Assembly: GCA_023053545.1 (NCBI GenBank)
Contig: JAKZAN010000006.1
Coordinates: 2,361,001 to 2,425,000, forward strand
Direction of reading: 5' to 3'
Length of the DNA stretch: 64,000 nucleotides
Source of the DNA: Lepidurus packardi
Lineage: Eukaryota > Arthropoda > Branchiopoda > Notostraca > Triopsidae
Each line of letters starts with the position of its first letter. Within the stretch, counting starts at the first letter, position 1. Made by a program: the position numbers and the translations under genes. The notes under the pieces were generated by a model. The model was not told the origin of the DNA and did no database searches. It was given only the letters and a program-made list of their open reading frames with translations. Below are positions 4,485 through 53,518 of the stretch, piece after piece.

Positions 4485-6303
4485 TTAGCTCCACTCTTGG
4501 TACTTTAGATATAACTTGAGTGAGGTGGGCAAGTCCAAATGGTCAACTTGTAAGGTTGACACTCGACTGCGAACACTCAATCTGGCCAAGTGTTTGAGTG
4601 GAGGGAGAATGGAAGGCGCCGAATAAAAAGTGACTCTGGATTCTTTTGTACCCACAGCTAAAACTCGGGAAGACGGCGAAAAGGTACAACAAACCATCTC
4701 ATCTTCTCCCCACGCTATCGAAACGGGATCGGAATCCCCTAGCAGATTCCAAAAGCGGACAAAACCATCATCGGCAATGGTAGCAATTTGTAGGCCATGG
4801 CGACCATACGAAAGGCCACGTACCCAGGAAGAATTAGCTCCCGACGCGAAAATCGGCCTTGGCGGAGGGTGCAAATGGAACAAGGAGCGTAAAATTTGGC
4901 CAGTATAAGGATCCCAAAGTAAAACCCGAGTATCCCAGGAAGCCGAGGCCAATATGGCGCCATCGGGAGAGAACTGACAACAAACGACATTATGATGATG
5001 GCCTTCCAAGACCCGTGCTAACTCGTACTGCTCCATATTCCAGATTAAGACCTGTAAAGAACAACCATCATAAACTTTCAAACTTTGATTCGTTATAAAA
5101 CTTAGTTACCGTCTTCCCCATGCCAGCCGAAGCCAATAACTTTGAATTGGGACTCCAGCAGCACCACAGGACCTCCCCATCATGGCCCTTGAGAGTTTTG
5201 AACATGTTCCCATCATCTCTCAAGTCCCATACTTTCAATGTTCGATCTAATGATGCCGTCACGAGACGTAACGAGCCGTCTGGGGCAAAAGCCATATCGC
5301 GAACGGCTTCTCGGTGATCCATCAACTCGAGGAGTAATCTTCCTATACAGAGATATACATATTTTGAATATTTATGAGTGTTCGCGAATGTGATATGGTA
5401 ACCCAACCTGTAGTGATATCCCAAATACGGACGCGACCGTTGGCATGGCCGGTTGCAAAGACCAAATCGCGACTGAAATCAAATCTCGTCCAATACTGTT
5501 TGTTGGGAATGTCCAACTGAGCTTCAGGAGTCCCGCTCCCGAAAGCCGCTGAATTGACAGGAGTTCCCGCGTCAATATATACCACTTCTCCTTTAATTTG
5601 ATTGCCATCTGGATCTCTGTTATCCACGGCTAACCTGTCAAGCAGAAAAAACCGGGGATTAGAGAAACCGGTTGTAATCGAAGACGCGTTGTTGCATAGT
5701 GGTTGATGCGAGTCTAGTCACGTACAAGCATCCTTTATAGCGGTTCCATGGGACCAATACTACACGGCTTTGACCACAAAGCCACGCAAAACGGGTCTCA
5801 TCAGGCGAAAAAATGACGTGCCAACACTCGGCCGAGAGATTATTCTTCCGGCCCCGGTTGCGGCTTAAGGTCGAATGCTCCAAAGCTCCCCCAGTAGGTC
5901 GCAATTCTCCAACTTTTAGAGCCAAAGCTAGAGAAAAAAATAAGAAATTTATATCAGATTAATATGAGCCTCAAACCAGCTGATACCTGACAAAAGAAAC
6001 AAGATTTATGCCATCATTGCATGCGCTGCAAAAACAAGGCTGTTTGCCAGCTAAAAAAGACACCGAGCGAAAACTTGCTGCGCAGTTACAACGTGAAGAA
6101 AACTCATTGGGCACCGTCCAAAATATAGTTAGGTTTTTTATTTCCCTCGCCAGCGCCTCCTCATGAATATACGACAGAATAAGGTAACATTAACTGGGTT
6201 ATACTGGAAATAACTAGTTAAAGGATAGTGCGAAGAAATGATGCTTTAGTGTCGAGCCTCTGGCGAGCAGCCTACCTCCATCGTTATCCAATGTGAGCAA
6301 CAT
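4485..6303 (-). CDS. WD repeat and SOCS box protein (WSB1/WSB2 family)
   Basis: Substrate receptor of a Cullin-5/Elongin BC ubiquitin ligase by family knowledge. Five exons: 6303-6276, 5927-5726, 5634-5408, 5342-5110 and 5051-4485, giving 418 aa against about 420 for human WSB1. The N-terminal block with GELRPTG and VVLVPWNRYKG matches the family opening. WD repeats follow, with WD dipeptides such as KVWDLRDD, VLIWNMEQ, VLLWDPYT and VRFWNLL. The last 40 residues, ending LPTSLKLYLKYQEWS, are the SOCS box, including the Leu-Pro characteristic of Cul5 binding. The first coding exon (9 codons plus one base) was chosen because it has an ATG, a good GT donor and the right phase; an alternative upstream start cannot be excluded. 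All other exons are firm. Confidence 0.9.
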
Positions 6304-10655: not shown

Positions 10656-11275
10656 TAGTTATACGCCTTGCATCTTAAGGGTTTCCGGGGGACGATGATT
10701 CTTGACAGAATAAAGGTGTGTATATAAAAGATTCTACGGGCGTTTCTAATTTGAGATTAGTCATAGTATTTAGTATGTTGCTAATCTAGTTGCTAACAAA
10801 GACCTTTGGAGTAACATTAATGTCGTATAAGGAAAAAATTGTGAGAAGACATGATTTTCTGAATGCATGGCAAACTTAACCGTGACATGTTTGTTTCCTG
10901 CAATGACTGTTTCTATTCAGGATAATTTTTTTAACACTTTACTGGGTTACCTCCATTTTGAATTTTTTTCCGACATAAAAGCAGTTTTTCTAAAATCTTG
11001 TTTCTTAACTGGCGTTTGCACATTCAGATTCTTTCGTAATCCACTTTTTTCCAACTGCATTTTCCATAACTAAATTATATCCCGAATTTTAATTAAAGAG
11101 TGAAAACGTCTTAACAATGAAAGATAACAGACGTCCGTATAAAATTATATTAATTCTTCCTTGTTTTACATGTATATGTACAAAGGTTGACACGTTTTAA
11201 GTTTTCAGCACGAAACAACAAGAAAAGGGATCCAGCAATTTTAGAAAGCCAGAAAGAAAGAAGAAAAACCCAAGA
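10656..11275. other. intergenic between convergent DRG1 and XBP1
   Basis: Contains the two 3' UTRs. An AATAAA motif near 10709 fits DRG1. AT-rich sequence with a short spurious frame (10867-11073) fills the rest. No other feature seen. Confidence 0.5.
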
Positions 11276-12766
11276 CTAACAGTAAAGAGGAGGTAACGTT
11301 TCATCCAAACCCTGCAACCAGTCAGGTTCCTCAACATACTCATCAGTGTGCATGGAAGAAGTAGATTCATAATCGGAATCGTTTGCGCCTTCTACAATTT
11401 CCAACCAATCTTTAGTACAGCTAACAGGGCTCTCGTCGGCGAAGCTGCTTAAGCTCTCAGGGTAACTCGAGTCTTCGCCAACTTCCATACGACTTAATTC
11501 GTTCACTTCATCCAGTAATTTTTGTAAACCGTCGAAATCCACCGCTTTCTCGTCCACGAAACCGAGTATATCGTGACTCGCCTCCACTGCTTCGCTGAGG
11601 ATGGTCAAAATATCATCGGACCCCACCGTTCCCTCAGCTACGTTCTCTCCGACCTTGGCAGCGATTCCTTCCATTGAGGCGAGTCTATTATCTGCTTCAC
11701 AGCTACCTCGATTGGCGGCATCGACCCCTTCTCCAGATAAACCTGCCACACGGTGGACTGTGTAATGAGACTGATCCAGTCCTGGACAAGAGGAGAGTTC
11801 AGAAAAGTCTCCTTCTGCGAGTTTGTCCACAATCGCGGGTCGCGCTTCGTCGTCGTGTTCGTAGGTAAAATATTGATGCCCATCATGTTCATCAACATGT
11901 ACAACAGAGTAAACATGACGCAGGAATTTTGATCCATTACTTCCCATCTGAGACGCTGTTTCCTCTCCTGTTCCTTCTGCTGAGGACCACTAATGAATTC
12001 TGCTGATTCAAAGGAAGGGGAAGAAGCGTCTAAATCTGAGAAATCGCTGGCGCTTTCCGACATCACGCACTCTGCTGTTATGACTTCCACGTCTGGCTCA
12101 TCTTTACATACCGGCAAGGAGCAGCCCCTGCGGAGACGGATATTTTCTTGATTTAATCGTGTATTTTCTTGACGAAGTAACTCGTTCTGGACCAAAAGCT
12201 CATTGCTTTTCGCCTCTAATTCTCTGACGGTAGCTTCCAGTTCGTCCATACGGGCCCTTTTGCGCTCGCGAGCCATCTGAGCTGCATGTCTGTTTCTCAT
12301 TTTCCTGTAAGAAATAATGATTGATTAGCTCTATACTAGTAGATACAAAAAAAATAACAAATTCTGTTTACCTCATTGCAAGTTTATCTTCCCTAGACAT
12401 CAGTTTTCTTGTACCATGGAGAGGACTTGTGCCATTTTCAATGGTGGGACTTGGAGAGGAAGTAGGACTAATAGACCAAGTTGTAGTCGAAGGTACAATA
12501 GGCGTTAGCGTTCGTGAAGGCGACGCTACAAAATTGGCACCAATTGGTTCGCCTTGACTGTCCAATATAATAAAACTCACATCAGAATCTGAATCCGATT
12601 CCACTGCGATAGCCTGCATGGTATCACTAGTTTGGGAAAGGCTTGACAAGGGGACAATCGCTGGAGCAATATACCGAGGCTTTTTGCTCTTCATTCTTTG
12701 ATTTTTTACACTTTTCGTCGAACTCACGAGTCCAGGGACTTTTATGACCACTCTGTCGTTCGCCAT
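11276..12766 (-). CDS. Xbp1: X-box binding protein 1, spliced (active) form
   Basis: bZIP transcription factor of the unfolded protein response. Conventional exons are 12766-12372 and 12304 onward. Removal of the 23-nt IRE1 intron (12002-11980) joins 12304-12003 to 11979-11276 and gives 466 aa. The bZIP basic region (KMRNRHAAQMARERKRARM, around residues 132-150) matches the XBP1 class, with Asn-Arg-x-Ala-Ala spacing. A leucine zipper follows with heptads up to LRRG. After the splice the frame changes to an acidic, Ser/Glu-rich 230-residue tail ending in DWLQGLDETLPPLYC, the expected transactivation region. Without the splice the same mRNA reads in the other frame (separate entry). Both frames are long and open, which is hard to explain without the splice. 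Confidence 0.95.
11638..12766 (-). CDS. Xbp1: XBP1 unspliced form (XBP1u)
   Basis: Product of the mRNA before IRE1 cleavage: exons 12766-12372 and 12304-11638, 353 aa. It shares the bZIP with the active form but then reads the alternative frame. That frame contains a strongly hydrophobic stretch (SCVMFTLLYMLMNMMGI, about residues 255-272). By analogy with vertebrate XBP1u this would be the HR2 segment that brings the nascent chain and mRNA to the ER membrane. The function of the last 80 residues is not clear; whether they act as a translational pause peptide cannot be judged from sequence alone. Confidence 0.85.
11980..12002 (-). promoter_or_regulatory. IRE1-type 23-nt non-conventional intron with twin hairpins
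   Basis: Both cut sites lie in the heptamer CAGCAGA, which fits the IRE1 loop consensus CNG|CNGN. At the 5' site the loop is closed by five pairs (GAAT-class left flank against ATTC-class right flank). At the 3' site it is closed by TCCT/AGGA, with further pairs after one mismatch. Cutting after the G of each loop removes exactly 23 nt, the length known for Drosophila and C. elegans xbp1. The cut shifts the reading frame from the 11638-stop frame into the 11276-stop frame. Confidence 0.93.
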
Positions 12767-16049: not shown

Positions 16050-16068
16050 CGGTTTCTAGACGATAAAC

Positions 16069-19000
16069 ATGGCATCAGCAACTGCACCCACTAACAGTAG
16101 TACCGGTTTGGGGCTCTATTCGCAATCACAATACGCACCCAGCTTGGATAATCTTTTGGAGAGTGAGGTTATAGTGGGCGACGAATCGGATTCAGATCCT
16201 GATCAGAATTGTGGCGCGAACAATACCTGTAATGGCGTCCAGGGTAACCCATCCGAACCTACGTCATTGGCGTTGTCTGAATCGACCAACGCGAGCCTGA
16301 CCAGCGCCACGCCCACGTCTCGCCGTTCTACGCCAACTCCGTCCCCACGGGTCACTATCAGTCCTGCTCCTCGAACGCCTCTACATCAAAATGGGCGTCA
16401 GCGACCGAATGGGACGACCAGAGATGAAGGTCTAATAACATCCCCGAGGCGAACTCCCATGTCTCCACGCCGCTTTTCGCAACCTCCAGCACCTTTGCAG
16501 GCACCTTTTGTGGTTCTGCCTTTGCGGTCGCCCTCTTGGAGTCAACCGACAGCTTCCAGTACGCTCAAGCAAGGGGCAAGGGTCAAGGACAACAAATATG
16601 CTACCTTAGGTCGTCGGTCCAAGTTGAACGTTCCCGAAGAAGATAACGAGTTGGTCGGCGTGGGAACTGTAGAGGCCAAGAACGTGATGGATAAATTTGC
16701 GACCTTACCTAGGAAACGAGTCAAAGAAAGGCCAGCGCTTCCTCAGTTTGTCATCGAAAAGGAGAAAGAGAAAGACGGCAAGGAAAGCATGAAAAAGGAT
16801 TTTCATTATGCGACTTTACCACGGCGTCAGAAAGACAAGACGGATGTTTTCAAACCCAGTCCAAGCAAGACGTTGACACCCCAACCCGAGACGAAAGCGA
16901 TGGCTAATAAAGCGGCTATTCCGCCAGAAGCCAAGTTTGTCTCGCCGGCCTTTAAACCCAAAGTTCCCGAGAAACCCAAAGAGCTGAGCAAAAACGTGCC
17001 GATCCCCTCCCCGAAACGGAGCGTCGTGGGGAATGGGAACGCCAACTCCAAGCCGGGTACGCCCAATAAAGCCAGTCTGACTGCACCCACTCCTCCGCCC
17101 AAGCCGCGCACTTTGGCCCCTGTTGCCGTGCGCCACAAAACAATGATATTTTTAGAAAAATGCAGTCAAACTGTCCTTACTCTGCACGATATTCATGAAG
17201 CATTGGAGGATTTTAAAAAACAAGGAAGAATGTCGGCGTCCGTCTCCAGGGACGTGTCGCATCAATATGAATCTCAAGGCGTCCAGACCGAAGAAGCTCC
17301 ACTTGACCTGTCGGGGCTGGCTGTATCCAACGCGGGCAAGGAAAAGGAGTTGGCTCACCATCAGGAGCAAATTCGCGAATACGAGCTGTTGTACAAAAAC
17401 ACATTGGAAGCCATAAAATCCAAGTCCATCGCCTTGGAAGAAGCGGAACAAGAGGTAAGCCGATGTCAGGCTTTACTGGAAGAAGAGCGGACGGAAAGGC
17501 GATTAGTTCAAGACGAATTGGATAAAACATCTTTGCGGGTTTCAGCCATGATTGACTCTATGGAAGGGGTAGAACGAGGTTGGTTTTTCTCCCCGTCTTT
17601 TCAATTATTTATTTTCCCCTTCAATCTGCTTTCCTTTAATTTTCTCTCTGTTTATACAGAATTTACGAGCCGCGGGAATAGTTTGCTGGAAGTTGAAGGC
17701 CAGTTGCACGTATCGACCCATGTGGTTTACTCCTTGCAAGAAGAAGTAGGTTCCTTGCAAGACGCCCTCCGCTCCCAGGCTTTTGAACTCGAGCGCTCCA
17801 TGGCCGCTCAAAAGATGTTGCTTCAACAGCTCCAGGATACCGAGGCAGAAAGTCGGGAACTGCAGGAATTTCTACAAGCGGAAAAGTCGACTCTCACCGA
17901 GGCCTTGCGAGAGGCTGAAGTCGAAGTAATTTAACATATAAAAAGTCGTCGAGGAAAAGTTTAACAGTTTTATTTTCATAGATATGCTCCCTGAAGGGAG
18001 TTGTTTTGGAAAAAGACAAAGCCTTGAGGAGGCAGGAAGAAGAGTGTCAACACTTGGTGCGATTGGCAGAGCAACGAAAGTAAAAGAAGGCAGATATACG
18101 AGACGAGAGGATAAGAGATAATATCTTGGGTATTCTAGGCACGAATTGTTGGCCCTGCAGCTAGAATTGCAAGGAGCTCAAGGGAGGGCGGGGTCCGCTT
18201 TAGTTTGCCAAGGCGCTCAAATCTCGGCGGCTTCTGTCTTTGTTGCCAACTTGACGGCCCGTCTGGATAGTGCCGTACAAAATCTAGTCAATAAGCACCA
18301 GCTCACGTCAGATGATCTCGAGGTAAAGAATTATTGTTTTTTTTTTATTTATTTTCTGTCCAAAGCAGCTTGGATTTATAAAGCATTTGGAATCTTTTAG
18401 GCGTCAGTTTATTTGAACGAGGCGTATCATGAAGCTGAGTTTGGCCACAATCCCTTGACGGCATCCTCTTCCGCAGTTGGAGATTTAGCCAATAGCGACC
18501 GGCCGCCGTTGATTGGCTCGCCCTCATTGCAGAATTTATCTAATGCCATCAATCTGCGGAATCCGCCAGAGGGAGAAGAAAGGAGTGATAGCAGTGTAAA
18601 CGAGGATCAGCCACAGTCGTTGACGGATCAGTTGGAAGAAGCCGATCACGGACTCAGTCGTTTGTTGAAAGCAGTGGATAGGGTTGGCCATCAGCAGGAG
18701 CATGCGATTCTGCAATTACGGGAGCAAAACATTCAATGGGAAGGCAGCTACAAAGTATAAACTTAAAGAGAAAAAGCATAATATCGAGTTGCTCATGCTG
18801 TTTACTTGTTAGGCACAAAGCATTACTCTAGCAGAGACTCGTGAAGAATTGACTCATTCCCAAAACGCCGAGAATCGCTTACTGACGGAATTGCAGCGTT
18901 TGCAATCCCAGCTTTCGCAGTCGCAGAAGGAAACTGAACGAGCACTTAATTTGCCTTCAGGCGTAGAAAATAACGAGGTAGGTTTGGGATATTATTGACT

Positions 19001-19575: not shown

Positions 19576-20559
19576 TTAGGATATTCGACAGGACATTGCA
19601 GTAGGAGAACAGTTAGGGTACTCCTTTAAATGTGGATCTCGCACATCTCCTTCGTCGGTGCCTGGTACGCTGTTGCTCGTCGGCGAGCCACTGGATCGCA
19701 CACAGACACACCGAGGTGCATTGGCACCCGGCGGTCTATATATACGAGGAACGCCTTCCCAATCTCGCTCGATGGCCCCACTAATAAGAAAAAAGAAACA
19801 ATAATAAAGACATTTTTGCTTTAGCGGTACATTTCCTCTAACCTTGATTTAGAGCACCAGACTCTTCCACCGTTAGCTTGACTCCATTCCGAATTGCATG
19901 GAGGATACACTTGCGCTTCTGCTTCTTGAGCCTCTGTGGCTAAAGCAGCGCGTTTTATTTTCTCTTCCACCTTCTCGCCGTATTCCGTAAGTCTTCCTTT
20001 GCCGTCAAAATACCGACCACTTAATTTACCTAAACAAATCGAATATAGTAATAATATATTCAACAGCGAATGCAGCTTGTGTCTTTTTACCAATGTAAGT
20101 ATAATCATTGTGATAAAAGCGTAGCCACTCGGCCAGCCCACCAAAATCTTGGTCGTCGAGATTTAAAACATCATCTATGAGCCCAGTCGGGGTAAAGTCG
20201 CCAGTGACGAAAGCACGAGACGCATCTTTGCCTGCAAATATGTGATAGCCTTCTCCAGGGCCATAATATTGCCGCCCTTTGGAAACGTCAAACACTCGTC
20301 CAAGTAATGCAAGATAAATAGGTGTCCTCTCGTCCTGACCCTTCAGTTGTGAAATCTCACCAAGCGAAAGTATTCTTTCACGTTCATTTATTGGGTCTGG
20401 GTCACTTGGATGTACCACCGTGCTAACAAGAAGCTTCCAAGCGTTTTCTATATCTATACCTGTGTTTTCTTGCAAGGGTTTTCGTAGCAATGCCAAGAGC
20501 ACAGCTATGCACAAAGTAACGGCTGTAAAAACACGAAACATATAGGTTTTGGTACCCAT
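19576..20559 (-). CDS. neuferricin (cytochrome b5 domain-containing protein 2)
   Basis: MAPR-family heme-binding secreted or membrane protein. Exons 20559-20091, 20029-19843 and 19780-19576, 286 aa, close to the family length. An N-terminal hydrophobic segment (VFTAVTLCIAVLLALL) acts as signal or anchor. The cytochrome b5-like domain runs from about residue 66, with LKGQDERTPIYLALLGRVFDVS, YYGPGEGYHIFAGKDASRAF and the YTYIGKLSGRYFD segment. The cysteine-bearing C-terminus has ERDWEGVPR, RCVCVRSSG and HLKEYPNCSP, matching the neuferricin tail. The third exon is not apparent from any long open frame but is required and fits in phase. Vertebrate neuferricin promotes neurogenesis; the role here is not shown. 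Confidence 0.9.
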
Positions 20560-20921
20560 GGTAGGTATATTTTAGTTTTAAGGTAATAACTTTTAGTAGA
20601 CTCGAGGGTGGAAACCCTTTTCTTTTGCTGGGGATGAAAAATAAACACGTGCCTTAGTTTACTAACATGAAACCGGTTAAGATAGGAATCGCAAACAGGG
20701 TTAATGAAAGGCGAATTGCGAAACTTAATTCGCCGTTTCCGTTTCGCGCCCATTTCGCTTTTTACCGTAATTTTTTAGGAAAACTGTTAACTTTTCACAA
20801 GTACTGCTGTATGGCATAGTGTAGCATATATTGCGATTGCACTGGCTTTATTTGCAATAAGGGGAAGTGAAGGAAGTGGTATCTCCCAGGGAAGGAAGTG
20901 TCCGCCCAACATCATGGTATG
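20560..20921. other. short intergenic stretch, nothing recognised
   Basis: Between the head of the neuferricin gene and the retrotransposon fragment. It should contain the neuferricin promoter. No clear motif was picked out. Confidence 0.4.
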
Positions 20922-21660
20922 TCCATGAACGATTGCCTTCTTCAAGGACCCGACCTACTAATCAGTCTCGTGGGACTTTTGATCCGCTTCCGCGAGAACC
21001 CAGTTGCCGTTTCATCGGACATTGAGTAAATGTTCCACCCACTTCTTGTACGTCCGGATGATACGTCCTTCGATTCTTGTGGAGGGCACCGAATAGTAAC
21101 GAAGCCCCTTCCACCTACCAAATGCGCGTACAAATTTTTGGAGCTATCTCCTCGCCAACAGTATGCAACTATGCTCTTCAACAAGTAGCGAAAGACTTTG
21201 CCCCAGAAGCTCCAGAACTCCGAAACAAGGTCGAGCGACAATTCTACGTCGACCATTATTTGGATTCCTTGGAAACCGAAAGCGAAGCACTTGACACCTG
21301 CAGGAGACTCACCACACTGCTGACCCGAGGCGGTTTTCGTTTAACAAAATGGCTTTCCTCCTCGCGAAAAGTCGTAAGCTCCCTTCCAGCAACCAAATAT
21401 TTTGATCCCAGGGTGATCGTGGACCTGGACAAGCCAAGCTCCTACTGGTGGAAAGAACTCTTGGAATTTTATGAAATTCAGACATCGATACCTTTTTCGT
21501 TCAAAATAAGTATGCGAGATGATCCCCGTACGAAAAGAGAGGTGTTGCGGACGGTAGCTAGCCTTTTCGATCCACTGGGATTCCTAGCTCCAGTTGTCGT
21601 AACTGCCGCTTTAGCCACTTTATGGCCACTGCTGATTCATATTATAGATTTAGTCGCACT
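20922..21660 (+). mobile_element. decayed BEL/Pao retrotransposon reverse transcriptase fragment
   Basis: Plus-strand reading shows parts of a BEL/Pao-class reverse transcriptase: a conserved CLLQGPDLL segment, then YQMRVQIFGA, a FYVDHYLDS stretch, GGFRLTKW and SLFDPLGFLAP. It is broken by an in-frame stop near 21030 and a frameshift near 21070. The catalytic YVDD box reads YVDH. No LTR, gag, integrase or flanking duplication was found. It is an old, dead fragment. The longest clean frame is 21077-21664. Confidence 0.85.
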
Positions 21661-21728
21661 ATAGAATCAAATTTTTAGAGGACTTTTTATTAGGACGATC
21701 GCTTATTCTGATCACTGGGTTTTGCACA

Positions 21729-31616: not shown

Positions 31617-32043
31617 AATGGAACGTTAAACTAGGGGAAAAATATTTTTACAGGTTCTTATATCAAATTAGGTAGTGATTACTGGCCCTGCAGAAGTGCA
31701 ATAAGGGTAAATCTTCGGGTATGCGAATGAAATTAAATCCCAAACTGACCAACGAAATCCCATAACTTTCCGGCCAATACTGAAAACAACGACAACGCCG
31801 CCATCTAGCGGAGGTTCCTTCCATCTAAACAAGGGTGCCAACACTAATACAGCATTAGCAAAGTTATCATAATGCTTATATTACCGTAAGTAAGCCACTA
31901 CATTTGACAGTGAACAACCTAACTCAATTGAAAGAATAAAAAATTTGCTTATTTATTCCGGTTTTGCTAGGCTAGCAAAAAAAGAAAAAAAGGAAAAAAG
32001 TCAAGTGGTTCTTTACTCTGAATTGAATTTAATAGATTCACGA
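31617..32043. other. intergenic with CTCF-like site
   Basis: On the minus strand 31813-31794 reads CCTCCGCTAGATGGCGGCGT, containing a CTAGATGGCGGC core like the arthropod CTCF motif. The SPT6 3' UTR lies at the right side, with a minus-strand AATAAA near 31950. Confidence 0.4.
31794..31813 (-). promoter_or_regulatory. CTCF-like motif between CCDC117-like gene and SPT6
   Basis: The minus strand reads CTAGATGGCGGC in context. It lies about 180 bp upstream of the start codon of the CCDC117-like gene. Confidence 0.35.
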
Positions 32044-35000
32044 TCATTCATCATATAAGGGCGTGCCGTCTCCAATATCCATATTCCGAGGACTATTGAT
32101 AGTTCTGGGCGTAGATCTCGGCGTTGTAGAAGCTCTTCCCCCATGTGGAGAAGGAGTTGGCGCGGGTCGATCCCGGGGCGTTCCCCTGCCATCGTACCTA
32201 GGCGTTCTTCGTTCATCAGGCACGGTCCTGCTATTCGTCCCGCTGCTACGTGGTGTACTGCTTCCCCCCGTCCGACGACTACTTTGCGCCCACGCTTCGG
32301 CTGCTTTTCGCCAGTCCGCAGATTCTGCTCCTCCGCCGTGCCCAGAAGTGGGTTGACTTGTAGGTCGCATCCTGGAGGAAGGACTCGCCAAGCCCGGCGA
32401 ATGTTGTGGTTGCTGATGCGAAGAAGGTCGCTGGAAAAAATTGGATTGTGTGTGTGTCTGTTGGACTGCAGGATATTGTCCGCGGACTGGCGTGGAAGGA
32501 GCCCTAAAGACTTGTGCAGGTGGCTGGCCATGGCGTTGTAAAGACGGATTTGCTGTGTTGGGTATACCATATGTTCCATATTGTTGGGGAGGGGTTTGGG
32601 GAGGAGCTTGACCAGGAGTGCTGGGATAGCGAGGTGTAGTGTAGGGAGTCATGAACGGAGTTTGTCCCGAAGGCGTATAGGGCTACAAAAAAGCAACATG
32701 CCGAAATTAGTTAATATAAAGAATCTAAATGATTATAAATAAGTGAGTATACATAAGTAAATATTGCTTACAGTGTTTGCGGAGTACCCAGCAAAGCCTG
32801 GCGTGTTTTGCGCAAAATGGGGCGTGCCCATACCCACTACAGGAACGCCCGGGGCTCCTATGTGAGGGGTAAGGCCACTCATAAACGGAGTCCTGGATGT
32901 TCCTGGCGCGCTCTTGGTAGAATTGGGAGTGCCAGGAAGTGGATCTCTAAAATGCTCTTTAAACCATTTGAATAAGACTGCTAGCGAGTCAAATATTTGG
33001 CCACGGAAGCGAAAACCTTCTGGAGTTACAGTAACGTATTCGTGGCGACAGGTTTTGCGGGGCAAGTACGAGAGCAAAAATTTTCCTGGAAATTCTTTGG
33101 AAGCTGTCATGATATAATGGATCTTGGCGACGTTCTTTTTCTTTTCTTCCTTCAGCCATTCTTCGGCTTTTTCCCGCTCCAAGTTCTTGGGCGGATTCGC
33201 AGGCGTTGTGGCAGGAGTAGGGGCTTCCTTTTCTTTGCTACTGCCGATATCTTTGTAGTAGCGGAAATTTATCAAATCGCGCGCATGCGCAGCCATAGGG
33301 TTGACATACCGGGCGATAATTTCGTCCAAGTCTTCAAACTCTTCTTCGACAACCCAAAGCGAGCGTCCCAAGCTGAACGCGTTCTCTTTTCCCTCTTCTC
33401 GTACGTCGATGTGCTGCAAGACGCCCTCCGTAACTTTCCAAGTGACGGTTAGATGGTCAGATCCCTTGGAAGACGGGCGAACAATAACCTCCCCTTGATC
33501 CATGTTTACCATCAGTTTCTCAGCTTCTCGGAAACCAATGTTATGGAAAGACGGATGAACAATCACTCGCTTGGTATAAGCTGCTCTGTGTTTCTGCTGG
33601 ACTGCATCTTCGGCTGTTTTGGTCGCCTTTTCTTCTGCCGTCACGTCATAGTAGGGATCCTTCGGAGGTCGCCATTCGCTTTTGGTGTCCCTCAAATCAG
33701 ACGAACGAGACGTGCACGTCACCTAAGCAGACGATCATAGGTTAAACTACGGTTTTAAAATTTATTGGGGAAAAGAAAGCTACCTGGAATTTTTCCACGT
33801 CAATCTTAATTAGGCGACAATGAACGGTCATTCCAGGTTTCACTCTTTGCTCTGGATGCTTCACTTCGGAATCTGAAAGCATTTTGATGGGTATAAAGCC
33901 TGACAATCCATTATCAAGTTGGACTCGCACTCCTGTCGCTTGTCCGCTACAAGCGCCAGCATCGAAGTGATTCCACACTTCAGACAAGTCAGGAAAATCA
34001 GCTTGTAGACAGAATGGACACTGCCATAGACCCGTGTCTTCCTGCCGAACAGGATTCGCACGATCCAACTGTTCACGTTGAGGTTTGCGGTGCGAAAAAC
34101 CTACAAAACAAGTTCAAATAGGAAACTTACTTCCTTTTTTTTGGCACATCTTTACCTGACACGGTGCACATAAGTAGTTTCCCAAGATAAAAGGTCTCGG
34201 GATTTTCCTTAGTCAACATGTTGAAGATCTCTTCTGGAGTGGATGTCGAATACGCCGTACGTAGGTCTTTGTAGCGATGATTGAGCTCGGCTCGAATGTC
34301 ATACAAAGTGATGCTCTTGTTGCCAAAGCCTTGTCTTTCCAATTCGTCAGCAAAAGCATCCAAATCCAAGTCCTTCAAGCGTTCAGGGGCTTCCAAAATT
34401 TCTTCCAAGGCCCCAGCAGGATTAGCATCTTCGTCATCGTATTCTAGAGCGTCCACCGCCATTTTGCGAGCCCATTCGTAAGTTTCAGGATGGACTCGCG
34501 TTCCGTCTAGTACTTCCACATATGCTTCTGTCGAATCCCCGAGAGATGCCGTGTCAATCTTGATAAAACCGGCGCAATTGATGAATACTTTGGGACCCAT
34601 GTGACACAGCGTGACTAATTGTGTCCGATTTTCTAAGCGCTGGTTGGTCTGTTTCAAAATCTATTTAAAGAAAGGAGTTAAAAAAATGTTCGTAGGAGAG
34701 GAAACAACTAATTTACTTTCAGCAAAGCTTGAGCTTTACGACAGCCAAGACCGCAGACAAACTGAAGGACATTGGAGGTATTAGGATAGGTTAAGGCTCT
34801 GTTTACGTCGACGCCCACATCATTAGTTCGGTTAACAAATTCAAGGTATAAAGCCTCTAGCAGTTCTTCTTTAGGGATTTGGTCTTGTAGGGGATGATAT
34901 CGTAAGCAGAGGATTTCTTCTTCGGTACCACACAACTGAGAAAATTCCAGCAAAGGATCTTGCATCCGTCTGGCCAAAGAGATGGCTTCCCTTAACAATG

Positions 35001-39544: not shown

Positions 39545-39738
39545 TTTCGATCAAGGACTTTTAATACTACTGGTACATCCCTTAGTCGAGCCCCTTTGTT
39601 TACAGAAACAACATAGAGTAACGATACAGAGAAGCACGTGTTAAAACTGCTGTCCATAAAAAGTCATTGTAAGCAATACGACTTTCTTGTTTTGCTATTT
39701 GCATTACTTGCAGGAAGTTGTCTTTTTCGTCGTCTATT

Positions 39739-41266
39739 ATGGCTTCCTCGTCGTTTTTCAATAAGTTAGGAAAAAATGTTCGTATGCGGTTTTGTAACGC
39801 GGTACTTATCAACGCTGCAAAAAAAGATTTTCCAATGGCAACGATTCTAGGTCAGCCACTAGTATATAAATCTAAAAGTGTGCGTGAATTGTCAAGCTAT
39901 GTTCCACCAAAGTTTCGATATGGAGAGTTCAATTCCGACAGCGAATCGAACAATAACGAAGTTACAGACCACGTCGAAAAGCCCAAAGAAAAGAAAGTAG
40001 GCAAGGACAAAAGCGAGACGATTCGTAGATTACAAGCAATGGCTCATGGAACTCTCGATTTAGAATCGGTTAACCCAGATCATGGGCAAAAATCTACTGC
40101 TCATCGTTCGGCAAATTTACTGCAGTTACAGCGAAAAAACCCAACGAGACTCAGCAATCGAGAGTTCGATGATTGGGACGACAAACAAGATAGTGACTGG
40201 TCGAAGAAAGAGACTTCGGCATATCGTAATAAATTCAACGAACAATCATTTCCTCGCAGTACGGAGAAAGAAAATTTTTCGTATGGTGTTCCAAAGAAAG
40301 AACAAACGGTATCGTATCGTGCTAGCACCCCCATAGAACAACCATTATTTCGCACAGTTCAGAAAGAAATTGCGGCTCAACCAGGTCATGACATCCTGTT
40401 TGGAATCCATCCCATCTTTATTGCATTAGAAGCTGGGAAACGCGAGTTTGTTCAACTTTGGTATAAAAAGGACACAGAAAAATCTAATCCCCGTCTGCAG
40501 CAAATTCTTCAAGTATGCAAAGAGAGAAATATCAAGACAGTGGCAACCGACGAGCATGCCTTTTTACGCGGATTACCTAGCGATCGAGCTCATCAAGGAG
40601 TTGCCGCTGAAACATCGCGGTTGTCTGCCGTATGTTTGAATGCAGAAGAACTTGAAACAAGTGTTCCAGCAAAAACACTTTGGACGCTATTATGGGAAAT
40701 TCAAGACCCCATGAATCTTGGTTCGATTGTCCGAAGTGGTACCTTCTTAGGAGTGAATCGAATGCTAATTACCAAAGACAACAGGTAACGAATAATGTGA
40801 AAACCAATCGTCGAAAAAAAAGTAATAAATACATTCAATATTTGAATAGTTGCTCCTTGTCTCCAGTGGCGAGCAAAGCCAGCGCTGGCGCATTGGAAGT
40901 CGTACCATTATTTTCTGTCGCTAGTCCGGTTTCCTTGATCGAGAAATTGCGTGAATGCGATTGGGAAGTAGTTGCAACGAGTTCTCAAGCCGGGGAAAAT
41001 TCCATAGCTCTGCACGACTATCACCAGCCTGAAAAACCAACTCTGTTAATAATCGGTACCTTACTTTTTTCCCCTCGAGTTACGATTTTTACTCATGTAG
41101 TATTATAGGTAATGAAGGAAAAGGTATTCCTGCGGAGGTGGAAGTATTATGCAGTACATCTTTGCATATCGCTCCTGGAGAGCATAACCACAAGTTGTTA
41201 GATTCCATGAATGTTGGAGCTGCTGCTGCCGTGCTATTTCATACTTTAGCAATGCGTGGAAAATAG
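39739..41266 (+). CDS. MRM1: mitochondrial rRNA 2'-O-methyltransferase MRM1
   Basis: SpoU-class (SPOUT) enzyme; the family methylates the ribose of a conserved G in the mitochondrial large rRNA. Exons 39739-40784, 40850-41055 and 41109-41266, 469 aa. Residues 1-220 are a mitochondrial N-terminus and a charged linker. The substrate-binding domain starts at DILFGIHPIFIALEAGKREF. SpoU motif 1 is EIQDPMNLGSIVRSGTFLGV, with the catalytic-site Asn-x-x-x-x-x-Arg. Motif 2 is IGNEGKGIPAE, split by intron 2. Motif 3 is LLDSMNVGAAAAVLFH. The ATG at 39739 was chosen; an in-frame TTG lies 21 nt upstream but is not a likely eukaryotic start. The stop lies 253 bp from the convergent selenoprotein M stop. 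Confidence 0.93.
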
Positions 41267-42465: not shown

Positions 42466-45400
42466 TTACATTCCTTCCAAAGTTAAACCCGGTCTTTGCA
42501 ATCTTTTACACGCGGCTGCCGGTAGAAATGGACAATCACTCACATTTAGGTAAGACAAATTAGGATTGCGAGCTGCTAATTCCAAGCTACTAATAGTTAG
42601 CAAAGGGCAGCCAGACACGTCTAAACGTGTCAAGTGCTTAAGACTGGTGGGCCCGCAGAGCTGTGCCACACCTGCGTCGCTCAACTTGCAACAGCCTGCC
42701 ACACGCAAGCACGTCAAATACTTCAGGGTCTGAGCAATACATCTCACCGATAATTCTGTAATATCCGTACCACTGAGCGACAGTTCAGCCAAAGATTTAA
42801 GCCGTGGACAGACACCTTCTTGTCCGCATAGCAAGTCTTTGAGGACAACGTCATTCAATCCAGAGACATGACTTAAATCCAGCGTCGAGAGAAGAGGAAT
42901 ATTCCCGCCTCTTAACGCACTGCAGACTTCCCAGGCGCATCCTTGTAAACTCAGCGTTTTCAAAAGCGGCATCCTTGGTAGAAACCAAGACAGTTGGAAC
43001 TTGCTCACAGGCCCCCAATCCAAGTACAAATGTTCGGGTTGACGTCGCACAATGCCTTGCATATGAAAATGCGTCAAGGATTGGTGCTTGACATCAACGG
43101 TTTTCCACAACGAAGGGTCAACAGACACTCTATTCCACGCTCGACAGACGCGCATGCAAACAAGCATGGTAGCTCGATCTAGATATCGAAAAATGGGCAA
43201 AAGAACTTCTTTGGAAAAGACCAACCTTTGAACATTCCAATCTGAAGAACCATTGGGTGTTGGAAGCACAACGGGTAAGGCAGGCCGGATTACCACGTGT
43301 GGTTGCCGTAACTCACGAGTTTGGGAAGCTATGTAATTTTCAAACGCAATCTTGTGAGGAGACGGTCCCGGTTTCTCGCAATTATTCTGACCTTCTTTGT
43401 TCTCACTGCTATTTCCGTCCCCAGTAGGTCCTAAACCCTTGTTGACCGAGCTTTTGTCTTCCGCAGCCCTGACAGTATCTTTGGAATTGGCGGGTGTTTC
43501 TTTTCTCAGAGGAAAGACTTCGTTGGGGACTTTGACGTTTTTCAACTTGGTACCCGAAACTACAGGCAAATCGCTGGCTAGTGGTTCATGTTTGATAAGT
43601 ACAACTGTCGGTTGCAAAGAAGCTGCTAACTTAGCTTCCACTAAACTCTTTACCGAACTCGATATCTTGTCCGACACGGCGCCAACTTCCGTAGATGGTC
43701 TCCGATCAGGCTTATCCAAAAACTTAATGATTGTAGCTCGTAATCGATCTTCCAAGTCTATACTATCTGCAGACGGAGCAATTTCGCCAACAGAAGAAGA
43801 AACACTTTCATGGGAGGACTCTTCCGAAGGAGCTTTTTTGCTAGAATCTTCCAATTGGAGTTCAATTTTGCATTTTTTTGGCTCTGGTGAGTCAAAATCG
43901 GTGGTGCAAACTGAATCCTCGTTTTGCGGCATGTCCACTTTACTTCTCGCTCGAAAATGTCTCGGCTGATCACAAACAAGAGATTAATGGATTGTATAAA
44001 ACCACTTCCATAGAAAATTACCATGAAAACCCCCAAACTTACTTTTGATTCCAGACTGTGCCCAGCGCAACGGCATTTGGGACACTCCCAGCTATTAGGC
44101 AAATCTTCATTGACGAATCCTTCCAAATCAGGACACTATGTGCACAATAATTTTCGTAATAGAAGCAAAATTAATACATTGTCCTGAACCTTACCTTCTT
44201 TTTGGCACAATGGCTATGAACTATTTCGTAACACACACTGCATTCCATCAAATTGCTTGGAGTAGGTTTAGAAACCTTGGAGACCGGCAAAATCACAGGC
44301 GAGTTCCAACCATCCAAACGACAAACAACACACACTGCCGTAATAGGCAAAAGTGGCTTTAAAAAGAAATAATTTCATAATTGAATTACAATTCCTATAA
44401 AGTAAACCAGTCTACACGTGTATGTTACACCTACCATCAAGCATTGCCGGGCCACGCACGTTTGCTTGGCTCGGCCAGTACCACCGAATTTGACCATATC
44501 CAAGCAAAAGCTGCACTGGCCGCAATCTTCACGGAGACAGGCGCTACATTTCTTGCATCTCGTCCGTCTCCTACGTGGTTCATTACCAGGGCCTTCACCC
44601 GGCGACTTTGGAACAGTACTAGGTCTTCCTTTCCCTTTTCCGATCCCCCTCACACGCTGGGTTTTCGTCGGCGACAATAAAGACGCAGATGGAGAGCACG
44701 TTTCATGCAACAAAAAAATGGGGATGCCGGACGTAGCCAGCTCTTGCTTATCATGACGGTGTCGTTCCACCAATGTGCGCACATCTTGGATCAAGTTTAA
44801 AGGGTTAGTGATCAAATCAGGGATATTTTTGCGGGACGGAGGCAGGGTGTTTAAAAACATGATAATGTCCTTCAAGCCATGCATTTCCTGAAGAGTCAAG
44901 TGATAATGACGGTCAACAGTAAAATCCGCTTCGCCGGGCAAATTCAAGTGGCTCCGACCCAGCAAGCAATGTACGTAGCGTTCCAATACGTACCACAACA
45001 TTTCGGCATAAAACGGATATCGGAACTTTTGAGGAACTTTGGTGGTATCTTCCACTTGAGCGATTCGCAACTGTTTTTCTATAGCGTAACTGTGCAGAAA
45101 GTTACCACCAAATACCAAAGAATCTTTCGGCGTGTACACAGCATGGATCCAGCCTGAAGGAATGAAGAAGGTATTACCCGGTTCTAAGTATACACGCCCA
45201 CACTTCTCCACTAAGTCGCCGAAAAAAATGTCCGTTTGCTTGCCCGACAAGACCCAATGTTCGTAGAGTTGCAGGTTGCGTTCACTAGGAGGAATTAACC
45301 AAAATATTTTGGCCCCTTTCAAGACGTGGTACCAAACAGAGGTCCCACCGAAATCGATGTGAAAATCAGTGTAACAGCCGGCTACTGACATAAGGCAATA

Positions 45401-46497
45401 TTTCTGGACCTTTGGATATTTCATCTCTTCTAAGCGATTGGTGGCGTCCATTTGTGATGCTTTTAGTAAGGTCGGCCAAGCGGTTTCTACCCAGTCAATT
45501 TGCTTGACTATCAATGGTGGTTGGACGTAATTTGCTAGCTTGGTGTGTGAAAATTCCAGGGAGATAACGTTTAAAAGGCGATCTTTCTTAGGGCTTTCGT
45601 AATACTTCTGCCACTCTTTCATAGTCATCTCCGTGTTACGTTGCGTAGCAACGTCCATAACGTCAAGCACCCTCCGAGACCCAACGCACGTGCGAACGTC
45701 ATCAATGGTAAAGTCCGGGTTGGGTATCGTTATACCCAGACCGGCTTTATTTCGAAAAAGCAGAGGCGAAGTTAAACCATTCTTTTGAAGATACACAACG
45801 GTGAAATCTTTGCAATTGTTAGCGATTAGCTAAAAAAATATATGTGCAAATAATGAGAGCGTTACCTTTGCCCTCCATTTGTTGGATAAAGCAGGCTGTA
45901 AATTTTTCGGTTCGTAATTTTTCATTGAGATCGAATGTAGCTCGCCCGTCTATTTCATCATCGATATCCGGAGGATCCCAACCATCTTGATTAGCCCGAC
46001 CTGACTTCTTCCAGCGCTATTCAATTAAATTTACCTTTGTTAAAAGAATTGTTCGGAAATTACATACAAGACTCTTTAGAGATTGAACAATTAATTCCCG
46101 AGAAACTTCTTACGTGAACACAAGACAACAGTAAGAGTGAAGTACAATGAAACCTTTGAAAAAAGGTTTTTTTCGGTTTATAAATATCGAAAAGAAATTC
46201 TAAACAATTCATGAGAATATTATAAAGGAAACTATAAAATTTACAATCTATCAATAACTCTAAAAGCGAGTCTACAAGGAATGCATACTGTATACAAGGG
46301 ATGCATACTGTATATAAGTACGAGAAAATAGAGACAATGATGCATATATAGGAAAGATTACGCAAAAAAAAGATAAAAATTTGCAAAGTCCTATAAACAC
46401 TTGCGACACCCCCCAACAACGAACAAAGAATTTTAATTGTTTCACGTACCTGACGACCTCCTGTTCCCTTCTTCGAATATTTCCTTTTCCCAGACAT
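42466..46497 (-). CDS. Kdm2: lysine-specific demethylase 2 (JmjC-CXXC-PHD-F-box-LRR)
   Basis: Histone H3K36 demethylase and CpG-island reader of the KDM2A/B family. Exons 46497-46450, 46016-45866, 45807-44435, 44356-44195, 44135-44043 and 43965-42466, 1,108 aa. The JmjC domain has the iron ligands in TDFHIDFGG (about residue 215) and the distal His in GWIHAVYT. The CXXC zinc finger reads [15 protein letters not shown] with KFGGTG (about 490-525). A PHD finger spans exons 4-5 (CVVCRLDGW through ECPKCRCAG). A long disordered linker follows, then an F-box ([24 protein letters not shown], about 870) and leucine-rich repeats to the end. The exon 3 acceptor at 45808 was chosen because the upstream AG would create a stop, and because EGKDFT matches vertebrates. 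The first intron (433 bp) is the longest. Confidence 0.96.
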
Positions 46498-50191: not shown

Positions 50192-52717
50192 TCAGTACCC
50201 TGCTCGGATATTTTGCGCGAACTGATTTACGGGCATTGGTTGCTGCCAAGCCATTCCGTATGAGGATGACGCGGGGGGAACATTGTGGTGGGCCATTGGC
50301 ATCGGGGAAGGCTGATTTTTGGAGTGAACATGTGCTTGTTGGGGTCGTTGGTAAGCGGACTTCTGTACGTGAGCTGGGGCAGCATGGTAACCAGAATTGG
50401 TCGCAAACGGCGGGTACTGAACGTATTCCATTGCAAGAGAAGCAGGGTATACTTGGCCTCTATAACTCGAGCTTCCTGGAGCTGCTGCGGATGGTGGTGG
50501 TGCAGCATGATTCATTTGGGGCTCAAGATATTGTGGCTGCTGTTGTTGGATAGCAGCTTGGTAGTGTGAGGGTCTGTTCATGGCTGGATAAGTTTGGGGT
50601 TTAATAGCTTGAGGGACGTATGCAGGTTGAGCAGGTTGAGGAACGTATGCAGGTTGAGCAGGTTGAGGAACGTATGCAGGTTGAGGAACGTATGCAGGTT
50701 GATCAGGTTGAGGAACGTATGCAGGTTGGGCTGGTTGAGGAATACGAGTTTCAGGAGCTGAATAGCTTTCCTGGGAAGCAGATCTATACTGTGTCAGAGG
50801 CTCAAAGCCGTATTCCACGCTGGTAGTCGCAAGGGTAGTCGCTGTAGGCGTAAGTGTGCTATAAACCGCTTTTGCGGTGGTTTCTTGCTTGGAGGTTATT
50901 ATTGTTTCTTCTTTTTGGTGACAGGGGGGAACAGTGGTTGTAGGAGTGTACTCGATTGTGGCTGGCTTCTCGTATTTTCTAGGAGAAGATGTAGGATATT
51001 GCTGGTATTGCTTCGCAGCATGTTTATTAGGGTAGTTTGCCCTCGATTCTGTTTCTTGCTGATGTTCTCCCGGGAAGGGAATATCATTCGAAATGGGTGC
51101 GGGTAGAAATGCCTGTGTTTCTTCTTTGATGGGTTCGTATTTGCTAGGGGCAGGTGTAGGATATTCGTGGTATTGCTTTAAAATAGGGTTGTAAGGAGAG
51201 TTTCCTTGAGATTCTTCTTCGCGGTGTTCTACCGGCAAAGCAACGTCAGTAGAAACAAGAGCGGGTTGAAGTCCATGGGTTTCTTCTTGAAGAGATGCTA
51301 GAATAGGTAGATTCAAGAGGTTGGTTGTGGCACCTTCCTTATTCTGGCTCTCATACGGTGGCTGTGCGTGCCGATAAGCGTTTGCATATTTGTTATTGGA
51401 ATATTTCGGCTGGTACTGAGTTTGTTGGACGTGATGCTCATACACTTGAGCTGTTTCAGCACTTCCGTACGGTACAGGAACAGGAGCAGTCGTAGTGGTT
51501 ACTTCAATTTGCATTGAAGTAGTTTGATATGGAACTCGCCCATGAGCAACCGCAGGAACAGGAACCATTGTCGGCTGCATTGTTGGGCTATATTCGGGTT
51601 TCGAAAGCGGTGTGCTGTATTTTGGTACTGGACGGAATCCGTGCTCTGGTTTGGTCGGGTATTGAGTTTTTTGTTGAGGGATTTCAAACTTGACGTGCAT
51701 TGGAGACTGGCCGGGCATTGAAGGAGACAAAACTGGAGTTTCAATTGAATACTGGTTGTAGCCGTGTTCTTTGACGCTGCTGTATTGTTGGGCAGGTTTT
51801 ATATAAGTGGAAGGATTGTAGGAATTAGAAGTAGCAGTTATAGGGACGATTTCCACGTTCTCCGCAGACGGGGCTTGGTATTGTGTTTGATAGGATTTTT
51901 CGTCATTTACAATAACTCCTTGCTTCTGTTCAGGCGATGTGTATGTATCGTAGGACTGCTGGTTCTCTTGTTGCACAGCTCCAGTTTGTTCATTTGTAGA
52001 CGCGTGTTGTCCTGTTTCTTCGAGAGTCCCTGGTGGATAAAATATCATTTCCACTTTAGTAGGTTGGTAAGAAGCTTCATCGTGTGCTGGTGCATATTCT
52101 TGATGCGACACTGGATTTTTGTGTACTTCTACTGGTGTTTCGGGTTCGTTGTAAACTTCATTTTGGTAGCTGTCTTTTCCATCCTGTGTCGTTTTTGCGT
52201 AGTCAGCCGGAGCGGTATATTTGAGAGTTTCGTGCGCAGGCTCGGGGGTGGGTAAAGGGTTTCCACAGCAGCGTACGAAACCGTATTCTCGGCATGGCGA
52301 AATTGCCCCAAAATCGCGCACATCGTAAATACCTATGCCGTACGGACGCGGACACTCTGTGGTAGGTTTACAGGGGCAGATATTTTGGTAGGGGTCTGGA
52401 GTTGCTGTTTCGATGAGTACTGGGGGTTGTACTAGGTTCGTGGTTTGAATCGGTTGATTGGGTTGAAAATAATAGTCATATTCGGAAAAGTCTTGCGCTT
52501 CTTCCATGTTCTGTTTGACTACTGTCTGTTGCTCGGTGTTTTGCTGGCTCGTTTCTTGGTAAAATGTTGAGAATTGCTTTTCGTATTGTAGTTGCTCAGA
52601 AGGAGGATTTGGCACTGGTAGGGAAGGCTGTTGCGGGTGCCGGAAGAAAAGGTTATATTCCTGAGTTAAACTCTGGCCGCACGCCAGTAGCAGAATCACA
52701 GCTACTGCTGATTTCAT
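50192..52717 (-). CDS. secreted Pro/Gln/Tyr-rich repetitive protein
   Basis: Single-exon gene, 841 aa from the ATG at 52717. This ATG begins a clear signal peptide (MKSAVAVILLLACGQSLTQ); an in-frame ATG further upstream gives a poorer start. A cysteine cluster lies at about residues 115-155 (CPCKPTTECPRPYGIG, then FGAISPCREYGFVRCCGN), somewhat like clip- or masquerade-type disulfide domains. The rest is low complexity: many Tyr-Pro, Gln-Gln and Thr. There is a tandem array of PAYVPQP units near residues 690-745 (plus strand 50610-50745). Such composition is common in extracellular matrix, cuticle-associated or adhesive arthropod proteins. No chitin-binding motif was seen. A minus-strand TATAAA at 52864-52859 could be the promoter. 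Confidence 0.8.
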   Translation of the reverse strand: MKSAVAVILLLACGQSLTQEYNLFFRHPQQPSLPVPNPPSEQLQYEKQFSTFYQETSQQNTEQQTVVKQNMEEAQDFSEYDYYFQPNQPIQTTNLVQPPVLIETATPDPYQNICPCKPTTECPRPYGIGIYDVRDFGAISPCREYGFVRCCGNPLPTPEPAHETLKYTAPADYAKTTQDGKDSYQNEVYNEPETPVEVHKNPVSHQEYAPAHDEASYQPTKVEMIFYPPGTLEETGQHASTNEQTGAVQQENQQSYDTYTSPEQKQGVIVNDEKSYQTQYQAPSAENVEIVPITATSNSYNPSTYIKPAQQYSSVKEHGYNQYSIETPVLSPSMPGQSPMHVKFEIPQQKTQYPTKPEHGFRPVPKYSTPLSKPEYSPTMQPTMVPVPAVAHGRVPYQTTSMQIEVTTTTAPVPVPYGSAETAQVYEHHVQQTQYQPKYSNNKYANAYRHAQPPYESQNKEGATTNLLNLPILASLQEETHGLQPALVSTDVALPVEHREEESQGNSPYNPILKQYHEYPTPAPSKYEPIKEETQAFLPAPISNDIPFPGEHQQETESRANYPNKHAAKQYQQYPTSSPRKYEKPATIEYTPTTTVPPCHQKEETIITSKQETTAKAVYSTLTPTATTLATTSVEYGFEPLTQYRSASQESYSAPETRIPQPAQPAYVPQPDQPAYVPQPAYVPQPAQPAYVPQPAQPAYVPQAIKPQTYPAMNRPSHYQAAIQQQQPQYLEPQMNHAAPPPSAAAPGSSSYRGQVYPASLAMEYVQYPPFATNSGYHAAPAHVQKSAYQRPQQAHVHSKNQPSPMPMAHHNVPPASSSYGMAWQQPMPVNQFAQNIRAGY

Positions 52718-53518
52718 GTCTGCAAATCTCGGAAGATTGTTAGTGAATTGTAGAAGCACAATTTACAGTGATAAACAATTTTCTTGGGTTTTATGCACAC
52801 AACTGTTCACTTCACTGACGGTTTCGGGTTCTGATTTTAGTCCAGCATTTCCTTTGAATTTATACCGGAAAGACCTGATGGCAAGCTCCACCTATTTTGC
52901 ACACAAAATTTTGACCTCGCATAGAAATGCCGCTTGACAGGGTATAGGAAAAATGGGGGGAAATTGCTAAGGTTGATTTTTATAGGTCATTTTATTCGAA
53001 TCTAGGCTTTACCGCAGCCGAAGGTTATTTTCCTTAAGAACGTGAAGATTTCATACCTTGGCTTATAAGCGATATGGGTGATCTCGGTGAAAATCAGGTC
53101 ATACTTTCTTCCTTGACCCGGTTTTCTCCGGGGTTCAACAGGTAAACCAACCTACGAAAACGAGAGTTGCGAGATCGCCCGGATTTCACATTTGCACGTT
53201 GGTTTCATTTGAGCAATAACAAGGATGATAACGAGCTAGTGAAGTTGCACAAAGGAAGTTGACATCAACGAGCATACGTTTATTTTTCCTAAGAAATTCC
53301 TAGAAGGGAACAACTTATTTCCCTTCTCGGATGTAAAGTCGGTAAACAAGGTTGTGTGAAGGGCATATACGAAATTTACGAAATGTTTCAAATAAGCAAT
53401 CTAATACATTAAAAAATACAAGGAATACTTAATGCGTTTCTCACAGTAATGTGGCTATGCTGCTATGATTGTGTGTAAGTACGACTTACAGATAATTATG
53501 TTTCTCCCCCGTTAGGCC
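52718..53518. other. intergenic between divergent genes
   Basis: Contains the putative TATA box of the repetitive secreted protein gene (minus strand 52864-52859). The other side probably carries a 5' UTR intron of SPIN90, since the SPIN90 start codon follows a CCCCCGTTAG acceptor-like sequence. No gene. Confidence 0.4.
52859..52864 (-). promoter_or_regulatory. TATA box candidate of secreted repetitive protein gene
   Basis: GGTATAAATTC on the minus strand, 142 bp before the chosen start codon. A TCAGT initiator-like motif lies about 45 nt downstream, slightly further than ideal. Confidence 0.35.

What the first reader, a model, noticed from the sequence alone, without database searches (positions are those of the whole stretch)
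11980..12002. Intact IRE1-XBP1 splice switch with a 23-nt intron and twin CAGCAGA hairpins
Both splice loops are the same heptamer CAGCAGA, each closed by a short perfect stem. Removing the 23 nt between them shifts translation from a 353-aa frame (stop 11638) into a 466-aa frame (stop 11276). Two long overlapping frames on one strand are explained by this alone. Identical loops at both sites are a tidy variant of the CNG|CNGN consensus.
Basis: partly seen in the sequence, partly recalled or inferred. Interest (0 to 1): 0.75.

Follow-up and report, generated by a model that had tools for sequence, protein, structure and literature searches.

The report
Ordinary animal XBP1 stress-splice switch
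The stretch is the IRE1 cut-and-rejoin switch of an animal XBP1 gene, which swaps the protein's tail when the endoplasmic reticulum is stressed; it looks real and well preserved in sequence but is of a kind already known in animals.

Summary
On the minus strand lies an XBP1 gene: ATG at 12766, one 67-nt GT-AG intron (12371-12305), a bZIP domain, then a 23-nt mini-intron (12002-11980) between two CAG|CAGA loops on 5-bp and 4-bp stems. Removing it turns a 353-aa frame into a 466-aa one. Rfam's Hac1/Xbp1 intron family RF04247 aligns full length (E 1.5e-4) but below its curated cut-off (35.8 vs 41 bits). Coding signal changes frame at the mini-intron; the loop pair is unique in the window. A working IRE1-XBP1 switch is well supported by anatomy; splicing is untested. 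It is not a notable variant: PMC13027231 reports a 23-nt intron in most insect pests it examined, and an EcoRI site in the Diaphorina citri intron, as here. 'Crustacean' could not be checked. Beyond the finding, the mini-intron tops an unusually stable 178-nt exon-exon stem (12078-11901; 2 of 2000 synonymous shuffles fold as well in 190 nt, 10 of 2000 after correcting for four sizes), possibly an extended ligation 'zipper', without comparative support.

The parts
12372..12766 (-). XBP1 coding exon 1 from the ATG (395 nt)
   Evidence: ORF continues through the GT-AG junction; length 395
12305..12371 (-). ordinary GT-AG spliceosomal intron, 67 nt
   Evidence: GT donor and AG acceptor; joining gives one frame with a bZIP domain; inferred from sequence, no RNA data
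11276..12304 (-). XBP1 exon 2, coding part, with both frames
11999..12005 (-). 5' IRE1 loop CAG|CAGA on a 5-bp Watson-Crick stem
   Evidence: aligned to RF04247
11980..12002 (-). 23-nt IRE1 mini-intron (contains the only EcoRI site of the cDNA examined, ATG to window position 10800)
11976..11982 (-). 3' IRE1 loop CAG|CAGA on a 4-bp Watson-Crick stem
   Evidence: aligned to RF04247
11954..12028 (-). full-length match to Rfam RF04247 (Hac1/Xbp1 non-canonical intron), 35.8 bits, E 1.5e-4, below gathering score 41
   Evidence: at gathering threshold no Rfam family matches in the window
11901..12078 (-). extended exon-exon stem predicted to carry the mini-intron at its tip; basal helix 12078-12060 with 11901-11921
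   Evidence: single-sequence prediction only
11638..11997 (-). unspliced-only C-terminus (XBP1u, 119 aa after 234 shared aa, with stop), with hydrophobic segment at aa 260-278 (HR2-like)
   Evidence: coordinates counted from the shared 234 aa
11276..11974 (-). spliced-only C-terminus (XBP1s, 232 aa and stop; 52 D/E and 12 K/R)
   Evidence: frame-specific coding score; no Pfam family at E 0.001 for its 223-aa part 11276-11947 (best E 0.14)
11175..11182 (-). TGTACATA in the 3' UTR, identical to a Pumilio element described for Drosophila Xbp1
   Evidence: element from PMC8948244; one of 12 TGTANATA in 64 kb on both strands, so chance is possible

Best explanation
This is a standard metazoan XBP1 gene with its IRE1 splice switch. 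Shown from sequence: the two-frame architecture, the two CAG|CAGA hairpins, the 23-nt spacing and the frame change. Inferred from the known pathway: without stress the mRNA makes a 353-aa XBP1u whose hydrophobic HR2 helps bring the mRNA to the ER; on ER stress IRE1 cuts both loops, the 23-nt piece leaves, exon-exon pairing holds the ends together, the RtcB-type tRNA ligase joins them, and the 466-aa XBP1s with an acidic C-terminus acts as transcription factor.
For: bZIP_1 E 2.2e-7, above its cut-off. Full-length RF04247 match, E 1.5e-4. Exact loop, spacing and frame facts. Only such loop pair in the window. Mean codon log-odds, frames 0/1/2: 0.075/-0.26/-0.26 before the mini-intron; 0.027/-0.52/0.075 in the overlap; -0.21/-0.43/0.24 between the two stops; -0.10/-0.14/-0.25 in 250 nt of 3' UTR. 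Removing 24 or 25 nt instead of 23 gives 345 or 245 aa instead of 466. HR2-like peak (1.78 over 19 aa) in XBP1u; the XBP1s maximum is 1.23.
Against: RF04247 score is below the curated gathering score. The twin-hairpin fold is a minority of the predicted ensemble and the 61-nt region is no more stable than shuffles. The residue ten before the C-terminal Trp (W343, counted on the tail printed) is Ala, whereas human L246 and W256, also conserved in fly, are the pausing residues (PMC4138184), so the pausing motif is not clearly met; no alignment to other species was possible. No homologous sequence, RNA data or IRE1 gene could be examined: no own genome is held, and two protein scans and one pattern scan found no relative.
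Confidence: 0.96

Rival explanations
1. The gene is an XBP1 whose switch has decayed: IRE1 no longer splices it and only the 353-aa frame is used.
For: RF04247 match below gathering score; twin hairpins not the predicted minimum in longer context.
Against: The spliced-only frame is open for 232 aa, and its part between the two stops has the highest coding score of the four segments examined (0.24 per codon); loops, stems and spacing are intact.
Confidence: 0.02
2. Two overlapping frames joined by programmed ribosomal frameshifting or by an ordinary spliceosomal event, not by IRE1.
For: Two long frames overlap on one strand.
Against: The removed piece begins with CA, not GT, and 23 nt is shorter than spliceosomal introns (established knowledge); the paired CNG|CNGN hairpins match a known IRE1 substrate model.
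Confidence: 0.01
3. The twin loops are a chance feature of a CAG-rich coding region in another bZIP gene.
For: CAGCAGA occurs 7 times on the minus strand of the 64 kb; the bZIP hits are general, and the best PDB match is JunD at E 0.0056.
Against: Unique paired arrangement, 0 of 60 Markov copies, full-length Rfam alignment including the outer stem, and a frame switch exactly there.
Confidence: 0.01

Closest known systems
Diaphorina citri XBP1 (PMC13027231; passages read)
   Same: 23-nt intron confirmed by cloning and Sanger sequencing, CNG'CNG loops in two stem-loops, EcoRI site inside the intron, XBP1u of 347 aa
   Different: five exons and a 939-aa XBP1s there; two coding exons and 466 aa here. 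Its intron letters were not in the passages read, so sequence identity was not compared
Rfam RF04247, bZIP non-canonical Hac1/Xbp1 intron of Metazoa (Rfam 15 paper PMC11701678, passages read)
   Same: two hairpins with 7-nt loops and an outer stem align over model positions 1-72 of 72
   Different: loops CAGCAGA against consensus CUGCAGC; score below the gathering score
Drosophila Xbp1 (PMC4138184, section 8 and passages; PMC8948244, passages)
   Same: 23-nt hairpin intron, HR2 in the unspliced frame, Pumilio element UGUACAUA in the 3' UTR
   Different: C-terminal pausing Leu-Trp pair not clearly present here; PstI rather than EcoRI in the fly intron
Litopenaeus vannamei LvXBP1 (PMC3634759, passages)
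   Same: a crustacean XBP1 with unspliced and spliced forms
   Different: sequence not compared

Membership tests
metazoan XBP1 | bZIP domain upstream of the mini-intron | tested here: met
   PF00170 E 2.2e-7, 31.3 bits vs cut-off 27.6, residues 125-186
metazoan XBP1 | frame shift at the mini-intron giving a longer C-terminus | tested here: met
   353 to 466 aa on removal in silico; coding signal changes frame
metazoan XBP1 | hydrophobic region HR2 in the unspliced frame | tested here: met
   peak 1.78 at aa 260-278 in XBP1u, maximum 1.23 in XBP1s
metazoan XBP1 | C-terminal translational pausing residues (human L246, W256) | tested here: inconclusive
   Trp present near the C-terminus, Ala ten residues before it (tail printed); no alignment to other species possible
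metazoan XBP1 | orthology by tree with other XBP1 proteins | not testable with these tools
   no eukaryotic collection was open to me; scans of viral and prokaryote contigs found no relative
Hac1/Xbp1 IRE1 intron (RF04247) | two 7-nt CNG|CNGN loops on short stems | tested here: met
Hac1/Xbp1 IRE1 intron (RF04247) | covariance-model score at or above the gathering score (41) | tested here: not met
   35.8 bits, E 1.5e-4, full length; none at gathering
Hac1/Xbp1 IRE1 intron (RF04247) | cleavage by IRE1 and ligation | not testable with these tools
   needs RNA

The most novel reading that the evidence does not exclude
The mini-intron sits at the tip of a selected exon-exon stem of about 178 nt (12078-11901), much longer than the 72-nt Rfam consensus; it would keep both exons joined after IRE1 cuts and drive ligation, with an inner zipper (12015-12011 with 11976-11972) competing with the 3' hairpin as a built-in switch between cutting and ligating.
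Probability: 0.25. Interest if true: 0.4.

Novelty: new member of a known kind. Interest (0 to 1): 0.17.

Why it matters
It places one more animal genome on the 23-nt form of the XBP1 switch and gives a ready ER-stress assay: the only EcoRI site of the cDNA examined lies inside the mini-intron, the same trick used in D. citri. If the long exon-exon stem proves conserved, it would let the RNA-zipper model of XBP1 ligation be tested with arm mutations outside the hairpins.

Tried and rejected
Relatives: protein scans with the 220-aa ORF of viral contigs (10 pattern matches, none confirmed) and genome contigs (22 pattern matches, none confirmed), and one 24-base pattern scan of viral contigs (0 matches). 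So no covariation or tree test was possible. Own genome: none held, so IRE1 and RtcB of this animal were not sought.

Lineage: two D. pulex Xbp1 primers from PMC3148505 matched nowhere in the window (best 6 and 8 mismatches), which speaks only against D. pulex or near kin. Rfam at gathering threshold gave no match in the window, so no lineage marker. ARAGORN found no tRNA.

Considered and rejected: that the twin hairpins are thermodynamically dominant. They are in the minimum fold of 60-61 nt, with C1-G6 closed inside each loop, but not of 90 nt or more. Requiring fully open loops and 4-bp stems gave lower probabilities (0.032 to 0.001 over seven contexts); I prefer, which leaves the loop free.

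The extended-stem result depends on the size and centring chosen: z is +0.38 for 70 nt, -1.65 for 110, -1.59 for 150, -4.71 for 190, -4.01 for 230, -2.89 for 270, -2.36 for 330 (200 dinucleotide shuffles each). The correction covers four of these seven sizes. Of 29 windows of 190 nt in steps of 60 along the transcript (60 shuffles each; the script's printed label '40' is wrong), z ranges from -1.88 to +2.22; the window only 14 nt off the centred one gives -0.82, as it loses part of the basal helix.

Papers: the Peschek 2015 zipper paper is not held; what I say of it comes from passages in PMC6037481 and PMC8616143. Hooks and Griffiths-Jones 2011 was not read. Searches for an extended XBP1 stem (20 of 29 papers listed) and for insect XBP1 stem-loops (5 of 5 listed) showed no title on a long exon-exon stem in arthropods; I saw titles and abstract starts, of open-licence papers only. 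PMC4891664 passages held nothing on arthropods; PMC13149111 passages gave general background only. Searches led to the papers cited; (17-nt introns) gave nothing useful.

Full report
What is there. On the minus strand an open frame starts at ATG 12766, crosses a 67-nt GT-AG intron (12371-12305) and continues through a bZIP domain (PF00170, E 2.2e-7) to a stop ending at 11638, 353 aa. At 12005-11999 and 11982-11976 lie two CAGCAGA heptamers flanked by 5 and 4 Watson-Crick pairs. Cutting each after CAG removes 12002-11980, 23 nt, and moves translation into a frame that ends at 11276, 466 aa. The finding's coordinates and lengths are exact.

Is it more than chance. In 64 kb, both strands, this is the only pair of CNGCNGN loops on stems of at least 3 pairs, 17-60 nt apart; 0 of 60 first-order Markov copies have one with 4-bp Watson-Crick stems. 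Codon scores trained on seven other ORFs of the window (2304 codons) favour frame 0 before the mini-intron (0.075; others -0.26), both frame 0 (0.027) and frame 2 (0.075) but not frame 1 (-0.52) in the overlap, and frame 2 (0.24; others -0.21 and -0.43) between the two stops; in the 250 nt beyond, all frames are negative. The second frame stays open over 112 overlapping codons in only 33 of 20000 codon-order shuffles. The coding signal therefore changes frame at the mini-intron.

Family. [quoted passage not shown] the other two listed are 3.4 and 4.8), and it aligns over its full length, outer stem included. Its 35.8 bits fall short of the gathering score of 41, and at that threshold nothing in the window is listed. 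The loop letters CAGCAGA differ from the consensus CUGCAGC but fit CNG|CNGN in a 7-nt loop, the rule given for S. cerevisiae Ire1 in PMC6037481. I call it an IRE1-type XBP1 intron on the whole of the evidence, with that threshold recorded as not met.

Structure. In 60-61 nt both hairpins are part of the minimum fold, though that stretch is no more stable than shuffles (z +1.30). In 90-190 nt the minimum instead pairs UCCUU of the 5' exon (12015-12011) with AAGGA (11976-11972) beside the 3' cut, and the twin-hairpin state lies 0.8 kcal/mol higher, with probability 0.044. This resembles the zipper described for mammalian XBP1, in which exon-exon pairing goes with intron ejection and holds the exons for ligation (passages in PMC6037481 and PMC8616143); here it is inference.

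A possible extra. The mini-intron is at the tip of a long imperfect exon-exon stem, 12078-11901, with 41 pairs between 12078 and 12025, 38 of them with probability above 0.9. The centred 190 nt fold at -65.0 kcal/mol; 0 of 200 dinucleotide shuffles (z -4.71), 1 of 400 and 2 of 2000 synonymous-codon shuffles do as well, or 10 of 2000 after taking the best of four sizes; with the hairpin core held fixed the figures are 1 and 4 of 2000. The predicted spliced RNA keeps the stem (-65.5). Sizes of 70-150 nt are unremarkable, and a 190-nt window 14 nt off centre gives z -0.82, so the signal comes from the basal helix 12078-12060 with 11901-11921, whose 3' arm also encodes the start of the HR2-like segment. 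One sequence cannot show selection. I give this reading 0.25.

Proteins. The unspliced tail has an HR2-like hydrophobic stretch (aa 260-278, mean 1.78 over 19 aa); the spliced tail of 232 aa is acidic (52 D/E, 12 K/R). The 223-aa part of it that was scanned has no Pfam family at E 0.001 (best 0.14). The pausing residues known in human and fly (PMC4138184) are not clearly matched.

Novelty. PMC13027231 reports a 23-nt intron in most pest species examined, 17 nt in Lepidoptera and Coleoptera, with the stem-loops and CNG'CNG motif highly conserved, and uses an EcoRI site inside the D. citri intron as an assay. The window's mini-intron also contains EcoRI, the only one in the cDNA examined. XBP1 splicing in a crustacean, L. 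vannamei, is stated as earlier work in PMC3634759. The finding is thus a new member of a known kind. The lineage of the window was not determined; an arthropod is likely from the Pao-type element and the insect-like intron, but this is inference.

Noticed in passing
window 12078-11901 (-): Extended exon-exon stem centred on the mini-intron, unusually stable in 190 and 230 nt.
   Followed up: partly
window 12928-12910 (-): CCAAT-N9-ACACG upstream of the XBP1 ATG, one mismatch from the ERSE consensus (recalled); one of 4 such sites with at most one mismatch in 64 kb on both strands, so chance is possible.
   Followed up: partly
window 11182-11175 (-): TGTACATA in the 3' UTR, identical to a Drosophila Xbp1 Pumilio element.
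   Followed up: partly
window 21062-21664 (+): Pao-type retrotransposon fragment (PF05380, E 9.9e-6).
   Followed up: no
window 32733-33722 (-), 42466-43983 (-), 44375-45829 (-), 39673-40788 (+), 4485-5105 (-), 20026-20571 (-), 53516-54757 (+): Neighbouring ORFs by Pfam (10 of the 20 ORFs scanned): SH2 (Spt6-like), F-box plus LRR and JmjC plus CXXC (KDM2-like), SpoU methylase, WD40 plus SOCS box, cytochrome b5 domain, SH3. Two scanned ORFs (16060-17934, 50192-52762) matched nothing at E 0.001. The gene names are recalled.
   Followed up: no
window 32013-32682 (-): Two frames of 211 and 212 aa are open over nearly the same stretch on one strand, one proline- and threonine-rich and next to the SH2 ORF; probably a composition effect.
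   Followed up: no
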